This document shows, one piece after another, positions 1,991 through 52,784 of a stretch of 64,000 nucleotides of DNA. Both the position numbers and the translations under genes were made by a program. A model generated the notes under the pieces. The model ran no database searches, was not told where the DNA came from, and worked only from the letters and a program-made list of their open reading frames with translations. The stretch's first letter is position 1; each line of letters begins with the position of its first letter. Origin of the DNA: Cavia porcellus (lineage: Eukaryota > Chordata > Mammalia > Rodentia > Caviidae); the NCBI RefSeq assembly GCF_034190915.1, contig NW_026947506.1:33831748-33895747 (forward strand), given 5' to 3'.

Positions 1991-2129
1991 ATGTTCTTTT
2001 CTCTGGATGCCCTGTTTGTGGTTACCATTGAGTTTTGATTAGTTGAGCTTTTTATGGAAACTTTTAACATTTTGAAATAGCCATAATGCTCTTATAAGAA
2101 ATGATACTAAGAGTAATAAAATTATCATA

Positions 2130-2815
2130 TGACAATCATTTGATGTATCCTTTTGCCAGCTTTCTGCAATAGTGACATCTTACAAAAGTGTTCAGTAATA
2201 TTGCAGAGTAATATTGCTATTGACACAGTCCACCAATTCTACATAGATTTCCTTGTTTTACTTGAACCCATAATTTGTGTGTGTGTGTTTAGATCTAAGT
2301 AATTTTATTACTTGAGTAGGTTTGTGTGTCCTTACACAGTCGAGCATGGAGTCATTCTGTCACTACAAGGACCCTTCCAGGTCCCCTTTTCTTCTTTAGT
2401 GCCCCCTCAGCTCTCTCTAGGCCCTCACAACTATGAACTGTTCTGTAATTATGTCATTTCAAAAACATTTTATAAATAGATTGTAATTCCCTTGAGGGTC
2501 ATTCAAATTTCTGTGTATATTAGTAGTTTATTCATTTATATTGCTAAGTAATTTTCTGTCACTCGGATATACTAGAGGTTGTTGACCTATGCATCCCATG
2601 CGGGAAATCTAGGTTATCTGTATTTTTTGGCTTATAAATAAAGCAGCCGTGAACCTTCATCTACAGGTTTTGTGTGGACCTAAGTTTTTATTTCTCTGAG
2701 GTGCCTTGTATGATACCTATGCATTCAGTTTCATAACAAATTACCATGGTGCTTCCAGAGTGTCTGTTACATTTTACATATTGTCAGCAATGTGTGAGTA
2801 AAACAAAGAGGCTTT
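2130..2815 (-). mobile_element. Ancient L1 (L1M type), antisense 3' region
   Basis: Plus strand follows the antisense order of old L1 3' ends: 'gtgacatcttacaaaa', 'attttattacttgag', 'actatgaactgttctgtaat', 'ataaagcagccgtgaac', 'aggttttgtgtggac', 'ttccagagtgtctgt', 'cagcaatgtgtgagt'. No open frame survives. Confidence 0.65.
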
Positions 2816-3880
2816 TCCTCCTGGTACTTGTGGTGAGGTCAACCCTTGTTCCCGTGTCCAGCTGCTGTGTGACTTGGTGAAGAGGCAATCCCGGGCTTGT
2901 GGGGAAGAAAGGTCCTTCTTCTGGCTACTTATTCTCTGTGGGCTCCAGACTGAACCCCTTGACTATGCTGCCGGCTTGCCCTCTAATGTTGATGGAATCG
3001 CTGTTGGATCGGGGTGTGGGATAAACCTGCAAGGCTGCCTTCTGTGAAATACCAGGCCTGGTTCACTGTCTTCTATTGGTTGAGTGGGCAGTAAGCTGGT
3101 AAGATGCTCCACCACTATCTTTCTTTGGTCCTAGAGTCCCTGACCAATTTCACCTCCTGCTTGTTCACAGTATGCACTTCTTGTTCATGGCTCTCTGCGT
3201 CAGCTGTATGCCTTTACTAGGCTTAGCTGCACTCAGTCATGCATTTATAGTTGACAGCATGTCCTGTAGTGGCTCTACTGATGTAGACTAGACTCTCATG
3301 TTTTGTGATCACTTGGCAATAGAATAATCTAGAATAGTCTCATCTTGAACAGTCATTCCCATACCTGTGGATTCTCTGGTCCTTCAGCAAGACAGCCTAC
3401 ACTTGTTCGTGCAGCAGGTGCCAAGAGTTATGAGTGTGTGGAAGTGCGTAGCCTCTTTGGCCTTAACTTAGAGCTGGCCACCTAGTCCTTAGCATCATTG
3501 GGTCAGAAATATGAAGTCACAAGATTAGCCATGATCCAATGGGGAGGGAAACAGACCCTCATTCTTGATAGGAAGAACATTAAAGTCACTGTACAGAGCA
3601 TAAAGACAGAAATGGGTGAAAAATTGAGCCTATTTTTGAAATACAATTCCTCACCCTCTTGGTTGCACATATGTATAATAAGTTAGTCTTTGGGGGTTCT
3701 GAATGCCTTTAGCTGGGGTTTGGCTACAGAGACCTATATCCTTGGTACTTTTCTTTGCTTCATGGAATGGATTTGGTTTTTTAAAAAGTCATTTATCATG
3801 GAAATCCTTATGCTTTATCTGCTGTGAAATTGGTGTCTTTGCCAGATTATTTCTTAGTTTTTTTGCATTTTTCAAGTATT
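2816..3880. other. Intron stretch, possibly more old L1 (5' region)
   Basis: 2820-3480 has a faint resemblance to the antisense 5' UTR of old L1M elements (for example 'tgctgccggcttgccctct', 'gctgttggatcgggg'), too weak to call. The remainder to 3880 shows nothing I can support. Confidence 0.3.
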
Positions 3881-3889
3881 CTAATAGAA

Positions 3890-6800
3890 GTATGTATAAT
3901 ATCTATCTTTTTAAATTTTTTATTATGAAACATAAATATAACTTAAAATTTACCATATAACCATGTTTGAATGTGTAGTTCAGTGAGTACATTCATATTG
4001 CTTATAAGCATCACCACCTATCCATCTTTTCATCTTTTCATCTTACAGAATTCAAAGTCTACATCACATCCATTAAATAATTACCCATTTCCTCTGTTTC
4101 TAAGCCTTCGCTAACAGCTTTCATTGTCTGTCTCTATTATTGTAACCACTCTAAGATCCTCATATTCATGGGATCCTACGGTATTTCTTTGGACCTCATA
4201 TAAATGGGATAATACAGTGTTTCTTTATGTGACTTTTTTCACTTAGCACAGATCCCCCAAGGTTGATCCATACTACAATGCCTGTCAGCATTTCCTTCTT
4301 TCTAAGGCTGACTGGTGAAAAGTAGCATCCTTCCATTATTTTGCTTCTTTGCCCATAATTCCCTGTATTATTGTCTTGTTTTATATTTAGTTGATTTTCT
4401 GTAGTGAAATGTTTTAATTTTTCACATTTCCTTTTGTTTACATTTTGTTTGTTTTCTTTGTAGTTACCATGGAAATTACATTTAATATCCTGAAGTTATA
4501 CATGGTGATTTGGATTTGTGCCAGCAAAATCTGGATATCATGCAGAAACACTGGCCTTTTATATCTATCCCCACTCCTATTAGTTGTTGGTGTAATAAAA
4601 ATTCCATCCTTATACATTGTGTGTCCAAAGATATAGACTAATAATTTTTTAAGATGTATTAATCTCTTAAATGATATAGAAAACAAACCATGGTGCTGTA
4701 AGCTAAAGCTATAATAACACTAGCTTTTAGACTAAAACATGTTTTTAAAAATTGTACTAGCATCTTAAATCATATAGGAAAAAGCTCTTGCTGCAAACAA
4801 TTATTATAGTACTGTTAGATTTTATAATTGCCCATGTGCGTACCTTTACGGAGATCTTCATTTCTTCATATGACAGTGAGTTAGTGATAGGTGTCCTTTT
4901 ATTTCAACCTGAAGGAATCTCTGTAGCATAAACTCCCTAGGCTTTTTAAAAAGTTCTAGGTAGGAATGTCTTAATTCCTTCCTCAGTTTTGAAGGATGAT
5001 TTTCCCATACATAGAATTCTGTTGCAGGATGGTTTGTCTTTGCATGTTGAGTACATTGGCCCTTTGCTTCTTTTTTTAAATTAATTTTATGACTACATTT
5101 TTGACATATATCACATTTATCATAGGGAATTTTTATCCATATATAATATATTTTAATTCTTTTTTCTTCTCCCTTTCAGTCCTTCTGCACTCCATTTGCT
5201 AAGCTTTATTTATGTTTTCTTTCCATTCTTATTTCTTTTTGTCTATTCCCTTCCTTCCCTTTCTCCTCCCCTTCCCATGTGAACATTTTCTTCCTATTTA
5301 CCAATACCTGTCCTCCATTTTGCTCCTTATTTTTCTTTCTCACACAAGAGAAACAATGCAATATTTAAGTATATATATCCAATTTATTTCACTTAAATTA
5401 TGTACTCAAGGTGCATCCATTTACCTAAAAATGTCTCAAGTTTATCCTTCTTTATGGAAGACTCCATTGTATACAAAAACCATATTTTCTTTATCCATTC
5501 ATCAGTTGATGGGCATATGAGCTGTTTCCAAAGTTTCTGATGAGAAATGTAGATAATTTCATTGATACTTCTTTTTGTGTGATGAGTCACTTCTGTTTTG
5601 CTACTTTGCCTTTGGACAGTTTAATTATATGTCTCAGTGTGAGTCTGTTAAAGTTTGTGAGCATCTTGGATGTTTATGTCCATAATTTTGTTACACTTGG
5701 AAAGTTTTTAAACATTGTTTTCAACTGTTTTCTCTCATTCTTTTTTCTTCTAGGCTTCCCATAACAAAATATTTGTCTGTTTCACTGTGTTGCACAAATT
5801 TATTTTCTTACACTTACTTCATTTAAAAGTTTTTTTTCTTTATCTTCCTAAATTCACCAATATCCTTTGCCCTATCCTCAAGTTCACTGATTCTTTCTTC
5901 TGCTCCAATGAGTCTGCTTTTGGATCTCATTGGTGAATTTTTCTCTTTGGTTGTAGTTTTTACCTCCAGAATTTGTTTATGGTTTCTCTTTTGATTTTCT
6001 ATCTCTTCTTTGACATTTATATTTCACTTAAAGATTGCTTTCTTCATGTCTTCTTTTAGTTCTCATAAAATATTTAAGGCAATATTTTAAAGTCCTTGTC
6101 TAGTAGATCTATCTTAAGGTCTTTTTCAGGGATAGTTTATATTCATTAGTTTCCTGTTCGTTTTGTATGAACCATACATTCTTGTTTCTTTGAATTCCTT
6201 GTGGGTTTGTTGTTGCTGCTGCTAAAAGTTAATATTTGAATCTTATAATGTGGTAACCTAAAAATAAGATTCTTTGCTTTACCCAAGGATTGTTTTTCCT
6301 TTCTTCATTGTGCAGTGTAAAAGGTCTGAGTCTTTTCTGAGCTGACCTCTTTCCCTGGCTATGCACAATCACTTCCTGAATTTTCCTGTGTGTGGAGTTG
6401 AATATCCTGATTGTTAATATGTTTTCTAAAAGAAAAGACAAATGGGAAACAGGAAAGAAGTGTTGAACCTTCAGATCTCTCAGCAGTCACTTCAGCTGCG
6501 GAGAAAAGGGTTGCAAAGGGAGGGAGCTACAACAAGAAGGGCCACTGGCCTGTTGATCTGAATTTCCATAACTAGAAGCAGAATATCTGACTTTGAGAAA
6601 GCAGTGATCATTTTGCCTACCCTGGATCCCACAAATTGTGCAATCTCTTCCAGGAACCTGTGTACAGCTACCTGCCATGGGATTAGGGTAGTGACATATG
6701 GTTGCTTCTGTACTAAGACCTGAAATTGACTGAGATTAGCTGCAGTTTACCACCCAGTCCATCCCTGTAAGCCTTCAGTGGCCTCCAGAATTCCGGAACA

Positions 6801-6895
6801 GTCACATTGGAGAAATTCTGTCAGTGTAACTTTTGTGTAGGTAGGAGACAGATTCCTGATGCTTCCTGCTCCACTACCTTGCCTGAGTCACCCTC
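3890..6895 (-). mobile_element. Ancient L1 (L1M type), antisense, rearranged, with nested insertion
   Basis: Four antisense L1 blocks in order. First is the 3' region (3890-4330: 'aaaatttaccatataacc', 'catcaccacctatccatc', 'ctcatataaatgggataat'). Second is a block with 'ttatacattgtgtgtcca' and 'atttcaacctgaagga' (4560-5050). Third, after an interruption, is a block with 'gatgagtcacttctg' and 'tgattctttcttctgctcc' (5535-6260). Fourth is a 5' UTR-like block ending 'ccttgcctgagtcaccctc' near 6895. No ORF is intact. Much of ORF2 is missing between the first two blocks. Confidence 0.65.
5062..5530 (-). mobile_element. Younger 5'-truncated L1 3' end nested in the old L1, antisense
   Basis: 'atatatccaatttatttcactta', 'ctcaaggtgcatccat', 'actccattgtatac', 'ttctttatccattcatcagttgatgggcat' is the antisense of a younger L1 ORF2 C-terminal/3' UTR. 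It breaks the old L1 text between about 5050 and 5535. No clear target-site duplication was identified. Confidence 0.55.
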
Positions 6896-9800
6896 TGTAT
6901 CATTTTTATATCCTAAAACTGTTATAAAACTTGGAAGTATTTTTCCAGGTGCATTATTTTGTTCTTTTGAATTCTGCCTTAATTTGTGGTACTAGCTAAG
7001 CCTCCTTGAAGTCTGACAAACTGTGATATGATGTGACTACTTCCAAATGAGACAGTAAAGATATCCCACTCTTTCAAATGTGAGGGGACCTTTTGCTTCT
7101 ATAGCAGGTTCATTATAATGGCCCATCTGTGAGGATAGGTGCTGGCTGACATAGGATCAGGTCTTTGGAAGTTCTGTGCATTTCTCTGCAGCAGCAAATC
7201 ACTTTCACAAAGGTTAAACTGGTGATTTTGGAATTACCAGGGTTACTGTTCCAAACATAGTGGGTTTCAGTAAATACTGGTTAAAATCAAGATTTTTTAA
7301 ACAGTTCAGGATGTTTGTTTTTGTGAGATTATGGTAGCGTCCCTTTGTAACTTTTTTTTGGGGGGGTGCTGTTTTCAGCCTTCCTAGTTTCTGTAAAGTA
7401 AGGCCATATGCAGTTGTCATTTTGTAATTCAAAAGCAATTCAGTACAGAAACTGCGCATGATTCATCCCGGTACTGAGTATTTCACCTGATGCAAGCTGT
7501 AACTCTTCATGTGTCACTTTCCCTGCTCTCCACAGCTTCTTTCACTGTCTGGAGTCCATGCTCTTTCCGTTTTCCACCCTGATCATTCATCCTGATGTTT
7601 TCAACTTTCATAACTTTTTTATTCATTATATGAAATATTATTTCATTGATGTGTTCTCTCCCTTTCCTATAGCTTAATTTTGGTTAACCTGCTCATGTGC
7701 AGGATTCCTACCCTGTGTTGTCCACAGTGTTCTTTATCATCTGCTGTGCAGCAGGCTAGGTGCCAAGACTTGGGTCTTGAATATGGTGCTAATATGCTTA
7801 GCAGATGTCTGATAAGTTAATTTGTGAGAGAATAAATGAGCAGCATTACTTTGGAGGAGCTTTCTGTCTTCAACAGAGAGAAACTTGTATGCAGATAGTT
7901 TCACTTCAGTGTGCAAAGAACAACAGATGTGTATACATTGTGCTTGGGAACACTGGAGACATTTGTTCTTGGTGCCCACGTTCTGCTTCCTAATTACATG
8001 CTGACAGATTTATGTTTGGATAATTTAAAGCCTCTATTACTATCACCTAAAAAAATGTGCAGGTTTCTCAATCTCATTTGACTTTTCTAGCTCAATACGA
8101 GGCACTCACTTTTGTGTAACAGTTTTCTGTTAGAGGCTTTCCTTGCTGGCTCTCTGGTTGTTGTAAGACTCAAACAGGAATAGCATGGGATCATGTATAA
8201 ACTACTGTGTAACTGGCACACATATAAGCATACCATTATTGTGTGCCATAGCTGTTAATTACTGATCACAGTAAGTGACCTGAAAAACAACTCCTCCGTA
8301 GAAAAAGATATTTTGCTATTTTTCTTTCTGGAAGAAATAAAAGATACCTAAGTTTTTTCCCAGTAACATTCTTCCCCAGTCAAATAGACATTTAACAGAA
8401 ATTGACCTTGATTTTTGTTATAGCAAGCTAAGATGTCAGACAGTAGTCTTAGAAAACCACCATATAGTGAAACTTCTCAAAATTTCCATGGTAACATGTA
8501 AAGCACTATATCACAGGCAGCTGTGTATACCTCCATGGACTCTGTTCCAGCAAAAATAGACCACTGCTGCTCCCCACACACCACTTTCTCATTTTAATCC
8601 ATGCTTTATCAATACTTCAGGCACCTGCTTCCTCATTGCTAATCATGAGGTATTTTTCTCTAAAATCTATTTTATAATGTGTGCTTTCTGGTTTTACTCT
8701 CTACCCTGTTGGCACTTACATAGGATAGGATAAAGGTATCACTATAGGACTGCAAAGTTTATTATTTTAAAGCATTTGAAACATAAATTATTGAATATTT
8801 TAACTGCAAACCTGAATAAAACACAAGTTTGAATTTCAAGCGGATTTTGTCTCCCCCTTTGTATTCAGATGGTTGTGTGCTAATTTCCACTTATAAGCAT
8901 GTGGCTTAATAGATATTCCTAAGCCTTTTACAAACAGTCTAATGTTTGAATAAGACTTTATGGCTGTCAGAGTGTTTACTCATGTAATCCAGTTTGATCC
9001 TTACCTTGTGACACTGTCAGGCAGGTGGTATGGTTGTCATTTTATTGTCAAGAAAGCATCCTTTGGGATGGGTTAGACAAACTTTGATTGAGATAAAACC
9101 AGAACCAGTGCTGATATCTTTGCACATACAGGGCCAGTGTGCCTACTGTGGACCTTGGCATAGTCTTAGCAAGATCTCAGGACCTCTGTCAGCCATGATC
9201 CCTAAAGCTATTGGCCTGTTTAACCTCAACTCCAGAGAGGGGACCCAAAGATTTTTGACTGATCACCAGTTTACATCTTTCCATGCCATCCCAAAATGTA
9301 CATAAATATTACTTCACATAGTTAGTGTAAGCTAGAGAACTTGACAGAAAGACTTATCCTTAAGGTGTTGCTAAAATATATATAGCAATTATGAGAGGAG
9401 ACATGGTCTTTTCTTCCTCCACTGATTCTAAGAAGTAAAAGCACCAACTCCTGAGAAAGCATCAGCAGGAAATGATAGACAGTTATTTGGTAGCTGATAT
9501 TTCCTAACATGGTTTTATATTACATAAGTATTTTGAAGTCTTTTTTAATTATTTTCTTGTCTTCTTTTCAAACAAAGTAAATATTTTTTTGCTGCTAGAA
9601 ATCAGATAGTCCCACATTTTCCATGCCATTGTGACCACTGTGTTGGTAACAACCAGGGTGAAAGCCTTTCAACCCTTAAGCAAATTTTGTTTGCCTGTGA
9701 AGAAAGGTAACCTAAAGCTAGAGTTGTATTTACTAACATAAGTCCATATTTAGTAGCATTTTCCTGAAGAAAATATGTCACTATGAAATAGTGAGATGGC

Positions 9801-49567: not shown

Positions 49568-49582
49568 TTGTCTTGTATTTTC
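49568..49582. repeat. Left target-site duplication of the HAL1-like element
   Basis: ttgtcttgtattttc, identical to 52770-52784. It contains a TTTTC that fits an L1 endonuclease nick site next to the tail. Confidence 0.93.
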
Positions 49583-51008
49583 TTTTTTTGTTGTTGTTTT
49601 TTAAATTTTATTTAAGGAGAAAAAAGAAAAAAAAACAGAAAAAGGGTACAAGTTATACAGAATTTCAGAAAAAATAAAACAGTAGGAAATCACTAGTTAA
49701 TTACATATTGTCATCTTAGAAATAGTTGTTGAAGTTACAAAATTAAAGCATATAGAGGGGACTTTCAAACAGTGAGACTGCAAAGTTCTGTTCAATAATC
49801 CAACAAAACTCAGTAATATGGTTATCTATCTTATACACTTAAATATATATGCAGTTATATCTTTTAGAGAACTTTCTTTTCCTTTCTTTTGTACAATCAA
49901 AATTACACATTTTGGGTTTTATTACTCCCACAGTTCTTATTACTTTTTTTTTTTTGAAGAAAGTAAAACCAAATGTGACATACCAGTACAGAGTCGGTCA
50001 AATCAAAAGGATGGACATAATACATAATGTAAAAACAAAATACAAGGTGATCAACAATGGTTACCATAATGCCTCTTGTTATCTTAAAAAGAATTGCCTA
50101 TATCATCAGTTGTAAAAAAAATTGAACAAAACAGTAAAGAGTAAGACCAATAAAACCAAAACATTGGAGACATTAGAGGACTTCAAAAGACGATAATAGT
50201 CAACCAGAATGGGCGTCATAATGAATCTTACTGTCTTTACAGTTGTTGCCTATACTTTTGAACTTGGTACTATCAAGCTAAGCAGACTAGGGGGAAATCA
50301 GTCAAAACAAAATGGTGAGGGCAATACAGGGTTTCAAATCAAGTTAATAGGAAATCAAAGTAGATTACTATAATGTATCCTGCTATTTTTCATTTATTTT
50401 TCCCTTAATTAAAAAGATAAAAATAAAAAATCAAATAATTAGAAAAAGGAGATTGAGATAAAAGAGAGCATAACAACAAAGCAGCGCAGGTCAAAACATA
50501 ACCATTTAAGCAAAATAGAGTTTTACCACAAGATATCCTGACATAAAAGTAGTTATCATAGTGTCTCTTTCCTTGAAATCTTTGAGTATAACTTCGTATA
50601 CTGTAGCACCAAACATATCCAGACAATGTAAAACCATTCAAGAGAATGACATTATTACAGGGTATTTAGAACCAACTAATAGAAAAGGAACAATGGTTTC
50701 TGTATAATCTCCTTGTCTATAAAACTTTTTTGCTTATATTATCACATATAATAGAATCCAATAAGATACAACCTCTTAAGACCGATGTACTTCAAAACAA
50801 GATGATACTAAATCAGCTTAGCTATTATGATGTCGTTTACTGCAAAATAGCTATTCCTACCTTCCAATCTTCTCTGCCTCATTTCTGTTGAGCTCTTTTT
50901 CTGTCATTTTTTGTCAGTTTGTCTTCTTCATTTCGCTTTCTGCTCCATTCATTGTGGCCTCTCTGCCACTATTTCTGGAATCTTGGTATTTTCCTTTTTT
51001 AGAATATC
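49583..51008 (-). other. 3' region and A-rich tail of the HAL1-like element
   Basis: AT-rich 1.43 kb without ORF2. On the plus strand, motifs such as 'cataatgcctctt', 'cataatgaatctt', 'tataatgtatcct' and 'catagtgtctctt' recur at roughly 150-190 bp spacing (about 50071, 50217, 50371, 50553), suggesting a decayed tandem array. Confidence 0.5.
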
Positions 51009-52018
51009 CTACAGTATTCTCTGTAGAGTTGAATTGGTGGTTGCAAATTTCCCTAGTTCCTCTTTATCCTGGAAGCACTTTGTTTTTCCATCAATTTCCA
51101 GAGACAGTTGTGCAGGATATATCAATCTTGGCTGGAGGTTATTATCTTTCAAAGCTTGAATTATTTCCCCCCACGCTCTTCGTGATTTGATGGTTTGTGC
51201 CGAGAAGTCTGCTGTAATTCTGATGGGTGTTCCCTTGTAAGTGATCTGTTTCTTCTTTCTGATGGCTTTTAATATTGTGTTCTTATATTGGATTTCTGGA
51301 ATTTTGATTATTATATGCCTGGGTGTAGCTCTGTTTGGGTTGTAGGTAGCTGGGGTCCTGTATGCCTCATACATCTGAGTATCTTTACCTTTTGCTAAAT
51401 TAGGGAAATTCTCCTGGATTATTTCTGTGAATAGCTTTTGTAGTTCATTTGTTTGAGTCCCTACTTCTTTTATGTTCTTAATTCTTAAGTTATAGATCCT
51501 CTTGTCATCTTCTAGTCTTTGTATTATTGGTGTTTGTTTTCTTATTTTTAAGAAGTTTTTCATTTCATGCTCCCACCTTACAAATCTGTCCTCCAGTTCT
51601 GATAATCTATCCTTAGTTTCTTTCAAGCTGTTATGCCAGCTTTCAATAGAGTTTTTAGTTTCCTGGTAATTTCTGTGAACCTGCTTCACGTATTCTATGT
51701 TTTCTCTATTTTCTCCATCAAACAATTCTCCCCTTTTTTTCTTTTCTTCCATTCCACCATCTGTTTTTTCTTGGGTGGTGCTTATTCTCTAACTATTCTA
51801 CTTATTTCTTGCTTTATTTCATTAAATACTTCATTTTTGAACTCGTCTATGAGGCTCCGGAGATACCATTTTATATCTATAGGTGCCATGTTTGATATTG
51901 CATGTTTTCTGTCTTCATTCTCTTTTGCTTTTACCTTTCCTGGATCAGTGTTCCCAGGATTGGGGACTGAGGAGCCTTTCTTGTTGCTCCCTTTTCCCAT
52001 ACTTTTTGTTCCTTCCAT
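51009..52018 (-). pseudogene. L1-type ORF1 (ORF1p-like RNA-binding protein), one frameshift
   Basis: L1 ORF1p is a trimeric nucleic-acid-binding chaperone that coats LINE RNA. Two open frames join here. 52018-51782 holds 78 codons from the start ATG, with a basic N-terminus (GKGSNKKGSS) and the start of the coiled coil. 51752-51009 holds 247 codons and is open upstream to about 51788. The second carries the rest of the coiled coil (ENIEYVKQVHRNYQE, LSELEDRF), the RRM (YNLRIKNIKEV, ENFPNLAKG, RATPRHIIIKI) and the C-terminal domain (YKGTPIRITADFS, LQPRLIYPAQLS). Both open windows overlap only at about 51785-51788, so a single small indel accounts for the break. Total length is about 335 codons, close to L1 ORF1p. 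The C-terminus ends soon after the LQRIL motif, shorter than the human protein. Confidence 0.88.
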
Positions 52019-52769
52019 ACAAGCGTATGTAGGAGGCTCAGTTTTTTTTTTTTTTTTTTTTTTTCTCTTTGTCTGTGGCAGTTTGTTTGAATCCGCCGGC
52101 TAGGTGTTCCCGCCCACTGCAGTGTACTAGGGAGACACAGACCTGGGCAGCCTCTGCTGGGCCCGCCCCTCCAGGTCAACCTAAGAATGCTTCACTGCGA
52201 GGGTGCACTGCCAGGCACAGGGACCTGATTTGGGCTAGCCTACAGCTTCTTAGTCCGCGGAGTCACCAGGCCAAGCGTTCCCCACCACTCCCGCTTGAGA
52301 GGGAATATGTGACTAAAGTCACTGCAGGGCCCTGTTCAGCTAGTCTGCTCATTCCCAGAATGTCCTATGTTGGAGCCTCCTAGTCTATGAAAGGGTCCCC
52401 ATTTCACTCACTACAGGTCGAGTCAGTCCTGCTCTCTATGCCGTTTGGGCCAATTACTGCTCTCAGAGCTTTGGCGCGCCTCTCTCCCTGCCGTGTGGAC
52501 TGGGACGCAGTATCGGCAGCAGGAAATTCAAATCGCGGCTTCCAATGGCGCGGGATCCAGCTTCCGCACTGAGATTTTATCTCTTCCTGTTATAGCATCA
52601 GGATTGCATAGCCAGTTGGTTTCTCTCAGCTTACTTTGTTCCTGGGTCGGCAAGGCACATCTCCCCTTGCGTGGAACTCCTCACACGGCACCGCTCCTGG
52701 ATTCTAAGCTGGTAATCTCAGAGAGCCTCCGTGGCTGCTGTTATGTGTCCACCATATTCTCCCAGAAGC
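52019..52769 (-). promoter_or_regulatory. 5' UTR / internal promoter region of the HAL1-like element
   Basis: About 750 bp, GC- and CpG-rich against an AT-rich intron (CGCCGG, CCGCGG, GCGCGCC, TCGCGG and others). It starts on the minus strand gcttctgggagaatatggtgg. The early ATGG core resembles the YY1-type motif near the start of many mammalian L1 promoters (inference). A 23-A run (minus strand; plus 52042-52064) lies just before the ORF1 start codon. A short overlapping ORF on the opposite strand here is not a gene. Confidence 0.65.
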
Positions 52770-52784
52770 TTGTCTTGTATTTTC
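52770..52784. repeat. Right target-site duplication of the HAL1-like element
   Basis: Exact 15-bp copy of 49568-49582, directly after the 5' end of the element. Confidence 0.93.

What the first reader, a model, noticed from the sequence alone, without database searches (positions are those of the whole stretch)
49583..52769. Recent HAL1-like (ORF1-only) retrotransposon inserted antisense in SDK1
A complete-looking 3.19-kb element has an L1 5' UTR, ORF1, 3' region and tail, but no ORF2. The 15-bp target duplication is still exact. Known HAL1 families arose from L1 by loss of ORF2 and move in trans. A copy this well preserved suggests recent activity in this lineage, and it may be a family specific to this rodent.
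Basis: partly seen in the sequence, partly recalled or inferred. Interest (0 to 1): 0.78.

Follow-up and report, generated by a model that had tools for sequence, protein, structure and literature searches.

The report
Guinea pig half-L1 jumping gene, patched
This is one copy of a known guinea pig kind of jumping gene that carries only half of the usual machinery; about a third of it appears to have been overwritten by an older copy about 200,000 letters away on the same chromosome.

Summary
The element is real: window 49583-52769 (minus strand) is a full-length ORF1-only L1 derivative with an exact 15-bp target duplication. All 39 scored non-self hits cross from ORF1 into the 3' region without room for ORF2; 11 of 26 fetched loci hold full-length copies. 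So it is a HAL1 family, not a one-off deletion. Guinea pig HAL1 families were in print in 2011 (PMC3183009).

Corrections: the 'junction' at 51008/51009 is a premature TAG inside ORF1; a 4-bp deletion also breaks the frame. The copy is dead and about 9% from other full-length copies, so not very recent.

New: the copy is mosaic. About 1.1 kb (50141-51257) matches an older HAL1 203 kb away, inverted, same chromosome: 57 of 73 of that copy's diagnostic sites are shared inside, 2 of 146 outside (limits set after seeing the sites). A shared 26-bp deletion scar was found at three places in the genome. Ectopic gene conversion is the best explanation; the premature stop probably came with it.

The parts
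49568..49582 (.). target-site duplication, copy at the 3' end of the element
   Evidence: exact 15-bp match to 52770-52784
52770..52784 (.). target-site duplication, copy at the 5' end of the element
   Evidence: exact 15-bp match to 49568-49582
49583..52769 (-). full-length HAL1 (ORF1-only L1 derivative)
   Evidence: 11 of 26 fetched genome loci hold full-length relatives in one aligned piece at 90.1-91.6%, none with ORF2
52079..52769 (-). 5' UTR
   Evidence: 91.6% to the 5' UTR of the copy in L012
50949..52018 (-). ORF1 region, ATG to the family's TGA; 359 codons in the copy in L012; disrupted here
   Evidence: L1 ORF1 domains. One search printed the TGA one base off; corrected by hand
51784..51785 (-). 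site of a 4-bp frameshifting deletion in ORF1 (between these bases)
49597..50948 (-). 3' region: mostly duplicated 3' UTR sequence, then a 3' UTR homologous to that of guinea pig L1
   Evidence: 70-71% to the L1 3' UTR over about 1 kb; internal repeats of the L012 copy
50141..51257 (-). conversion tract matching the HAL1 copy at G000:C23:33674758-33677858 (outermost limits of the clustered shared sites)
   Evidence: 57 of 73 diagnostic sites shared inside, 2 of 146 outside; control copies
49583..49618 (-). A-rich tail (approximate limits)

Best explanation
The element is one inserted copy of a guinea pig HAL1 family. Shown: an L1-type anatomy with one ORF (ORF1), a 3' region homologous to a guinea pig L1 3' UTR, an A-rich tail, target duplications, and many copies of the same structure. 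Inferred from established L1 biology: the HAL1 RNA makes its own ORF1p, which binds that RNA, and borrows the endonuclease and reverse transcriptase (ORF2p) of an autonomous L1, which inserts it by target-primed reverse transcription. Inferred from the mosaic: after insertion, about 1.1 kb of this copy (end of ORF1 and upstream 3' region) was overwritten by non-reciprocal ectopic gene conversion from an older HAL1 203 kb away on the same chromosome in inverted orientation, which probably also brought in the premature stop.
For: Family: 39 of 39 scored non-self hits span the ORF1 end and the 3' region in 587-632 bp; 18 of 26 loci have an unbroken match across the ORF1 end; 11 are full length. 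Insertion by L1: 13 of 15 copies show duplications of 10 bp or more (no chance control run), and the 3' region is 70-71% identical to the 3' UTR of an L1 with ORF1 and an ORF2 in two long open pieces (L019). Own ORF1: 3 of 15 copies have it intact; against one older ORF1-only copy (L029, dS about 0.5) dN/dS is 0.32-0.35. Conversion: distance profile; 57 of 73 inside, 2 of 146 outside; 11 other copies: 0-15 of 71-77 inside; in the core the window copy is 2.3% from the neighbour, 5.0-6.5% from three copies of the neighbour's older subfamily and a further fragment, 8.6-11.2% from 11 young copies; 13 states in the tract are shared by the two and by none of the rest compared; 26-bp deletion scar at three places; the third place, on C20, is 6.5-6.8% from both and lacks many states the two share. 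The neighbour has a different target duplication, so the two are separate insertions.
Against: No empty site, related species or reads could be examined. The tract limits were set after seeing the sites, so the Fisher value 3.5e-35 is post hoc. Two control copies also share some neighbour states in the tract (L032 15 of 77 inside and 14 of 157 outside; L033 12 of 75 inside and 4 of 150 outside). The 26-bp deletion is not unique to the pair. Timing does not separate conversion after insertion from template switching at insertion. In one search the neighbour is missing from the 40 scored hits although it should rank high, so such rankings are not exhaustive. The test for selection on ORF1 within the family was not significant (p 0.13, and 0.20 without CpG sites) and singletons fit neutrality.
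Confidence: 0.88

Rival explanations
1. An ordinary L1 that lost ORF2 by an internal deletion at this one locus.
For: It has L1-like ORF1 and 3' UTR.
Against: All 39 scored non-self hits share the same ORF1-to-3' arrangement without ORF2, and 11 of 26 loci are full-length copies of it. Its family's ORF1 is far from that of young L1 copies of the genome (dS about 1.5-1.8 against L019 and L014, near saturation).
Confidence: 0.01
2. The mosaic arose before or during insertion: a chimeric source element, or the reverse transcriptase switched between a young HAL1 RNA and an RNA related to the neighbour copy.
For: A third copy, on C20, has the same 26-bp deletion, so a small group of such elements existed. 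Private changes of the window copy are about as dense inside the tract as outside.
Against: Among the best-scoring hits no further copy shows this tract (40 scored each). The C20 copy is 6.5-6.8% away and lacks many of the shared states. The closest match of the tract in a 3.1-Gb genome lies 203 kb away on the same chromosome; a random place would lie that close in about 1 case in 7,700 (0.41 of 3,145 Mb, by hand).
Confidence: 0.1
3. A segmental duplication or an assembly error made the two copies alike.
For: They lie on one chromosome.
Against: The likeness stops inside the elements at both ends; the two have different target duplications and differ by 17-26% over the first 600 bases.
Confidence: 0.02

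Closest known systems
Guinea pig HAL1 families of Repbase (HAL1-1E, -1G, -1H, -3D_Cpo; names seen in passages of PMC3183009)
   Same: Same species; by name ORF1-only L1 derivatives; multi-copy.
   Different: The consensus sequences are not held, so which subfamily this copy belongs to is unknown. The table counts copies under 1% from consensus in those families; this copy is about 9% from the full-length copies compared.
HAL1 of human and other mammals (described in passages of PMC5753468 and PMC5322556; Bao and Jurka 2010 itself not held)
   Same: Encodes only ORF1p, has a tail and target duplications, depends on L1 enzymes.
   Different: HAL1s arose independently several times (PMC5753468); kinship with this lineage was not tested.
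Guinea pig L1 (L019, about 2001-9009)
   Same: ORF1 66-67% and 3' region 70-71% identical at DNA level.
   Different: Has ORF2, and its 5' sequence consists of tandem blocks with no match to the HAL1 5' UTR.
Gene conversion between Alu copies and in the human L1 Ta subfamily (passages of PMC554112)
   Same: A short contiguous run of diagnostic sites taken from another subfamily.
   Different: Here the tract is about 1.1 kb and a likely donor copy can be named.

Membership tests
HAL1 | encodes L1 ORF1p | tested here: met
   Pfam PF02994 and PF17490; intact in 3 of 15 copies, broken in this one
HAL1 | no ORF2, and the lack is shared by the family | tested here: met
   39 of 39 scored non-self hits; 18 of 26 loci with an unbroken match across the ORF1 end, 1 split by a small insertion, 7 not reaching it
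HAL1 | target duplications and A-rich tail (L1-mediated insertion) | tested here: met
   13 of 15 copies with duplications of 10 bp or more
HAL1 | moved in trans by L1 ORF2p | not testable with these tools
   inferred from the 3' UTR homology with L1
Repbase HAL1-n_Cpo subfamily | match to the named consensus | not tested
   no Repbase or Dfam library among the tools
ectopic gene conversion | contiguous tract close to one specific donor, flanks unlike it | tested here: met
ectopic gene conversion | unconverted allele or orthologue exists | not testable with these tools
   no relatives of this genome are held

The most novel reading that the evidence does not exclude
The guinea pig HAL1 is not a short-lived by-product but a long-lived half-element lineage whose own ORF1 has been kept by selection (dN/dS about 0.3 over dS about 0.5 against an older ORF1-only copy) and has diverged far from the ORF1 of the genome's young L1 (dS about 1.5-1.8), so that it depends on a foreign ORF2p but on its own ORF1p; and HAL1 copies lying inverted a few hundred kb apart can overwrite each other.
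Probability: 0.45. Interest if true: 0.45.

Novelty: already known. Interest (0 to 1): 0.25.

Why it matters
It confirms from raw sequence that a HAL1 family exists in the guinea pig, which was already in print. The added value is a clear example of how gene conversion between dispersed half-L1 copies can carry an inactivating stop and mislead both dating and subfamily assignment. The ORF1 data make it testable whether a half-L1 needs its own ORF1p.

Tried and rejected
Rejected: a one-off L1 deletion; an ORF2 remnant in the 3' region; 51008/51009 as a structural junction. Selection inside the young family: pairwise dN/dS 0.26-0.42 (7 pairs), but singleton N:S 2.63 fits the neutral 2.80-2.85 and the shared-against-singleton contrast is not significant; I count this as inconclusive. 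Whether an L1 with a closer 3' UTR exists did not complete. Copy number: only first-look candidate counts of 3,387, 3,501, 5,702 and 6,902 for different pieces, not true counts. A direct-repeat scan of the 3' region gave only short families. A phage search with ORF1 found nothing and was of no use. Bao and Jurka 2010 is not held and is cited through other papers only.

Full report
What is there. Window 49583-52769, read on the minus strand, is a 3,187-bp element flanked by an exact 15-bp duplication. It begins GCTTCTGGGAGAA, as other copies do with small variation, and has a 5' UTR, an ORF1 region, a long A+T-rich 3' region and an A-rich tail. ORF1 matches the L1 ORF1 domains and solved LINE-1 ORF1p structures.

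Which genome. Two proteins found with the ORF1 of a sister copy (L012) are named as Cavia porcellus and lie on contigs of 105,803,340 and 158,269,776 bases, the lengths of contigs C6 and C2 of the window's genome. So the window is guinea pig. One of these proteins, named as a ZNHIT3 isoform, is itself a 359-residue HAL1 ORF1p.

A family, not an accident. A 601-base query over the end of ORF1 and the start of the 3' region gave 3,501 first-look candidates; 40 were scored, and all 39 non-self hits cover the query in 587-632 genomic bases, leaving no room for ORF2. Of 39 non-self hits to the 3' end I fetched 26 at 10 kb. Of these 26, 18 have an unbroken match over the end of ORF1, one (L021) is split by a small insertion near it, 7 do not reach it, and 11 are full length in one piece at 90.1-91.6% identity. 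Thirteen of 15 copies examined (14 relatives and this one) have exact duplications of 10 bp or more; L018 and L013 do not.

The true anatomy of ORF1. In the copy in L012 ORF1 is 359 codons, ending in TGA. On that frame 3 of 15 copies (L012, L013, L028) are intact. The window copy has a frameshifting 4-bp deletion at ORF1 nucleotide 235 and a TAG at codon 340.

Origin of the 3' region. Locus L019 holds a guinea pig L1 of about 7 kb with an open ORF1 and an ORF2 open in two long pieces of 824 and 465 residues. It sits inside another HAL1 copy, in the opposite orientation: the two HAL1 pieces (96.9 and 97.1% to the L012 copy) meet with a 14-base overlap, as a target duplication would give, so that L1 moved after that HAL1 copy had inserted. 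Its 3' UTR is 70-71% identical to the HAL1 3' region over about 1 kb, and its ORF1 66-67% to the HAL1 ORF1. The HAL1 3' region of the L012 copy holds old internal repeats (58-63% identity, E down to 5e-18; best of 50 shuffles 8e-4), and most of the first 364 bases after ORF1 look like duplicated 3' UTR. tblastn found no ORF2 remnant.

Selection on ORF1. Against an older copy in L029, which lacks room for ORF2 between ORF1 and its 3' region, dN/dS is 0.32-0.35 at dS 0.46-0.53. That copy also lacks part of the 3' region, so an old L1 with a deletion is not fully excluded; but about 90 bases after its ORF1 match HAL1. Two further old pieces give 0.26-0.33, the neighbour copy 0.31-0.59, and five L1 ORF1s 0.20-0.41 at dS 1.2-1.8 (1.5-1.8 for the young L019 and L014), near saturation. 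Within the young family the tests disagree: pairwise dN/dS 0.26-0.42, but singleton changes fit neutrality (N:S 2.63 against 2.80-2.85 expected) and shared changes are lower (1.60) without significance (p 0.13; 0.20 without CpG sites). That ORF1 mattered over the lineage's history is likely; that it matters now is not shown.

Age. The 11 other full-length copies are 90.1-91.6% identical to this one. Among those 11 the mean pairwise difference is 2-5% per 100-base window at element positions 2001-3100, but they were picked as best matches to the 3' end and so are biased to young ones. The copy is moderately old, not a current insertion. PMC3183009 (passages) counts guinea pig HAL1 copies under 1% from consensus, so younger ones are in print.

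The mosaic. The window copy differs from the 11 others by 7-15% at element positions 1901-2600, but by 1-7% over ORF1 and 2-4% in the 3' end; in the 5' UTR the difference (6-11%) is like that among the others. Its best match in the tract is a HAL1 at G000:C23:33674758-33677858, 203 kb away and inverted. That copy is older (17-26% from the window copy over the first 600 bases) and has its own duplication, ATAAAATATGAAAG. Of sites where it differs from the family, the window copy shares 57 of 73 between positions 1513 and 2629 and 2 of 146 elsewhere (Fisher 3.5e-35, but the limits were set after seeing the sites). The same count on the 11 other copies gives 0-15 of 71-77 inside and 2-14 of 147-157 outside; L033 (12 of 75 inside, 4 of 150 outside) and L032 (15 of 77, 14 of 157) share the most. 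In the core of the tract the window copy is 2.3% from the neighbour, 5.0-6.5% from three members of the neighbour's older subfamily and a further fragment, and 8.6-11.2% from the young copies; 13 states in the tract are shared by the two alone among the sequences compared (the subfamily pieces hardly cover the flanks). A 26-bp deletion and a 2-bp deletion are shared. A 27-base pattern over the scar of the 26-bp deletion, with up to 3 mismatches, occurs at three places in the genome: the two copies and one on C20; more diverged copies would be missed. The C20 copy is 6.5-6.8% from both and lacks many of their shared states, so the donor is the neighbour or something very near it. The TAG at codon 340 is present in the neighbour and lies in the tract; it also occurs in L018. 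Conversion from the neighbour explains both sequence and place; a chimeric source or template switch would make the 203-kb distance a coincidence. Gene conversion among Alu elements, and at a similar rate in human L1 Ta elements, is in print (PMC554112, passages). A full-text search for papers with at least two of 'HAL1', 'gene conversion' and 'half-L1' listed 12, none about HAL1 conversion by title (listing only).

Verdict.

Noticed in passing
G000:C23:33674758-33677858 (L035): Older HAL1 copy with its own duplication, likely donor of the tract; it has 45-bp and 28-bp deletions of its own.
   Followed up: yes
P0001, P0002: Public guinea pig records named as isoforms of ZNHIT3 and JAZF1 are HAL1-like ORF1 proteins: annotation artefacts or HAL1-containing transcripts.
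   Followed up: no
P0003, P0004: Unnamed proteins from short ENA contigs, 66-69% identical, with the HAL1-type ORF1 end (AERPQ): possibly a HAL1 or its parent L1 in another species.
   Followed up: no
L019:2001-9009: Guinea pig L1 with open ORF1 and ORF2 interrupted once, inserted antisense inside a HAL1 copy with a 14-base overlap at the break.
   Followed up: partly
L012:4577-5957 (3' region): The 3' region of HAL1 and, more weakly, of L1 contains old internal repeats, one offset being about 150 bp.
   Followed up: partly
L014:1795-2915 and L019:2001-2857: The guinea pig L1 5' end is built of tandem blocks (about 260 bp in L019), unlike the HAL1 5' UTR.
   Followed up: no
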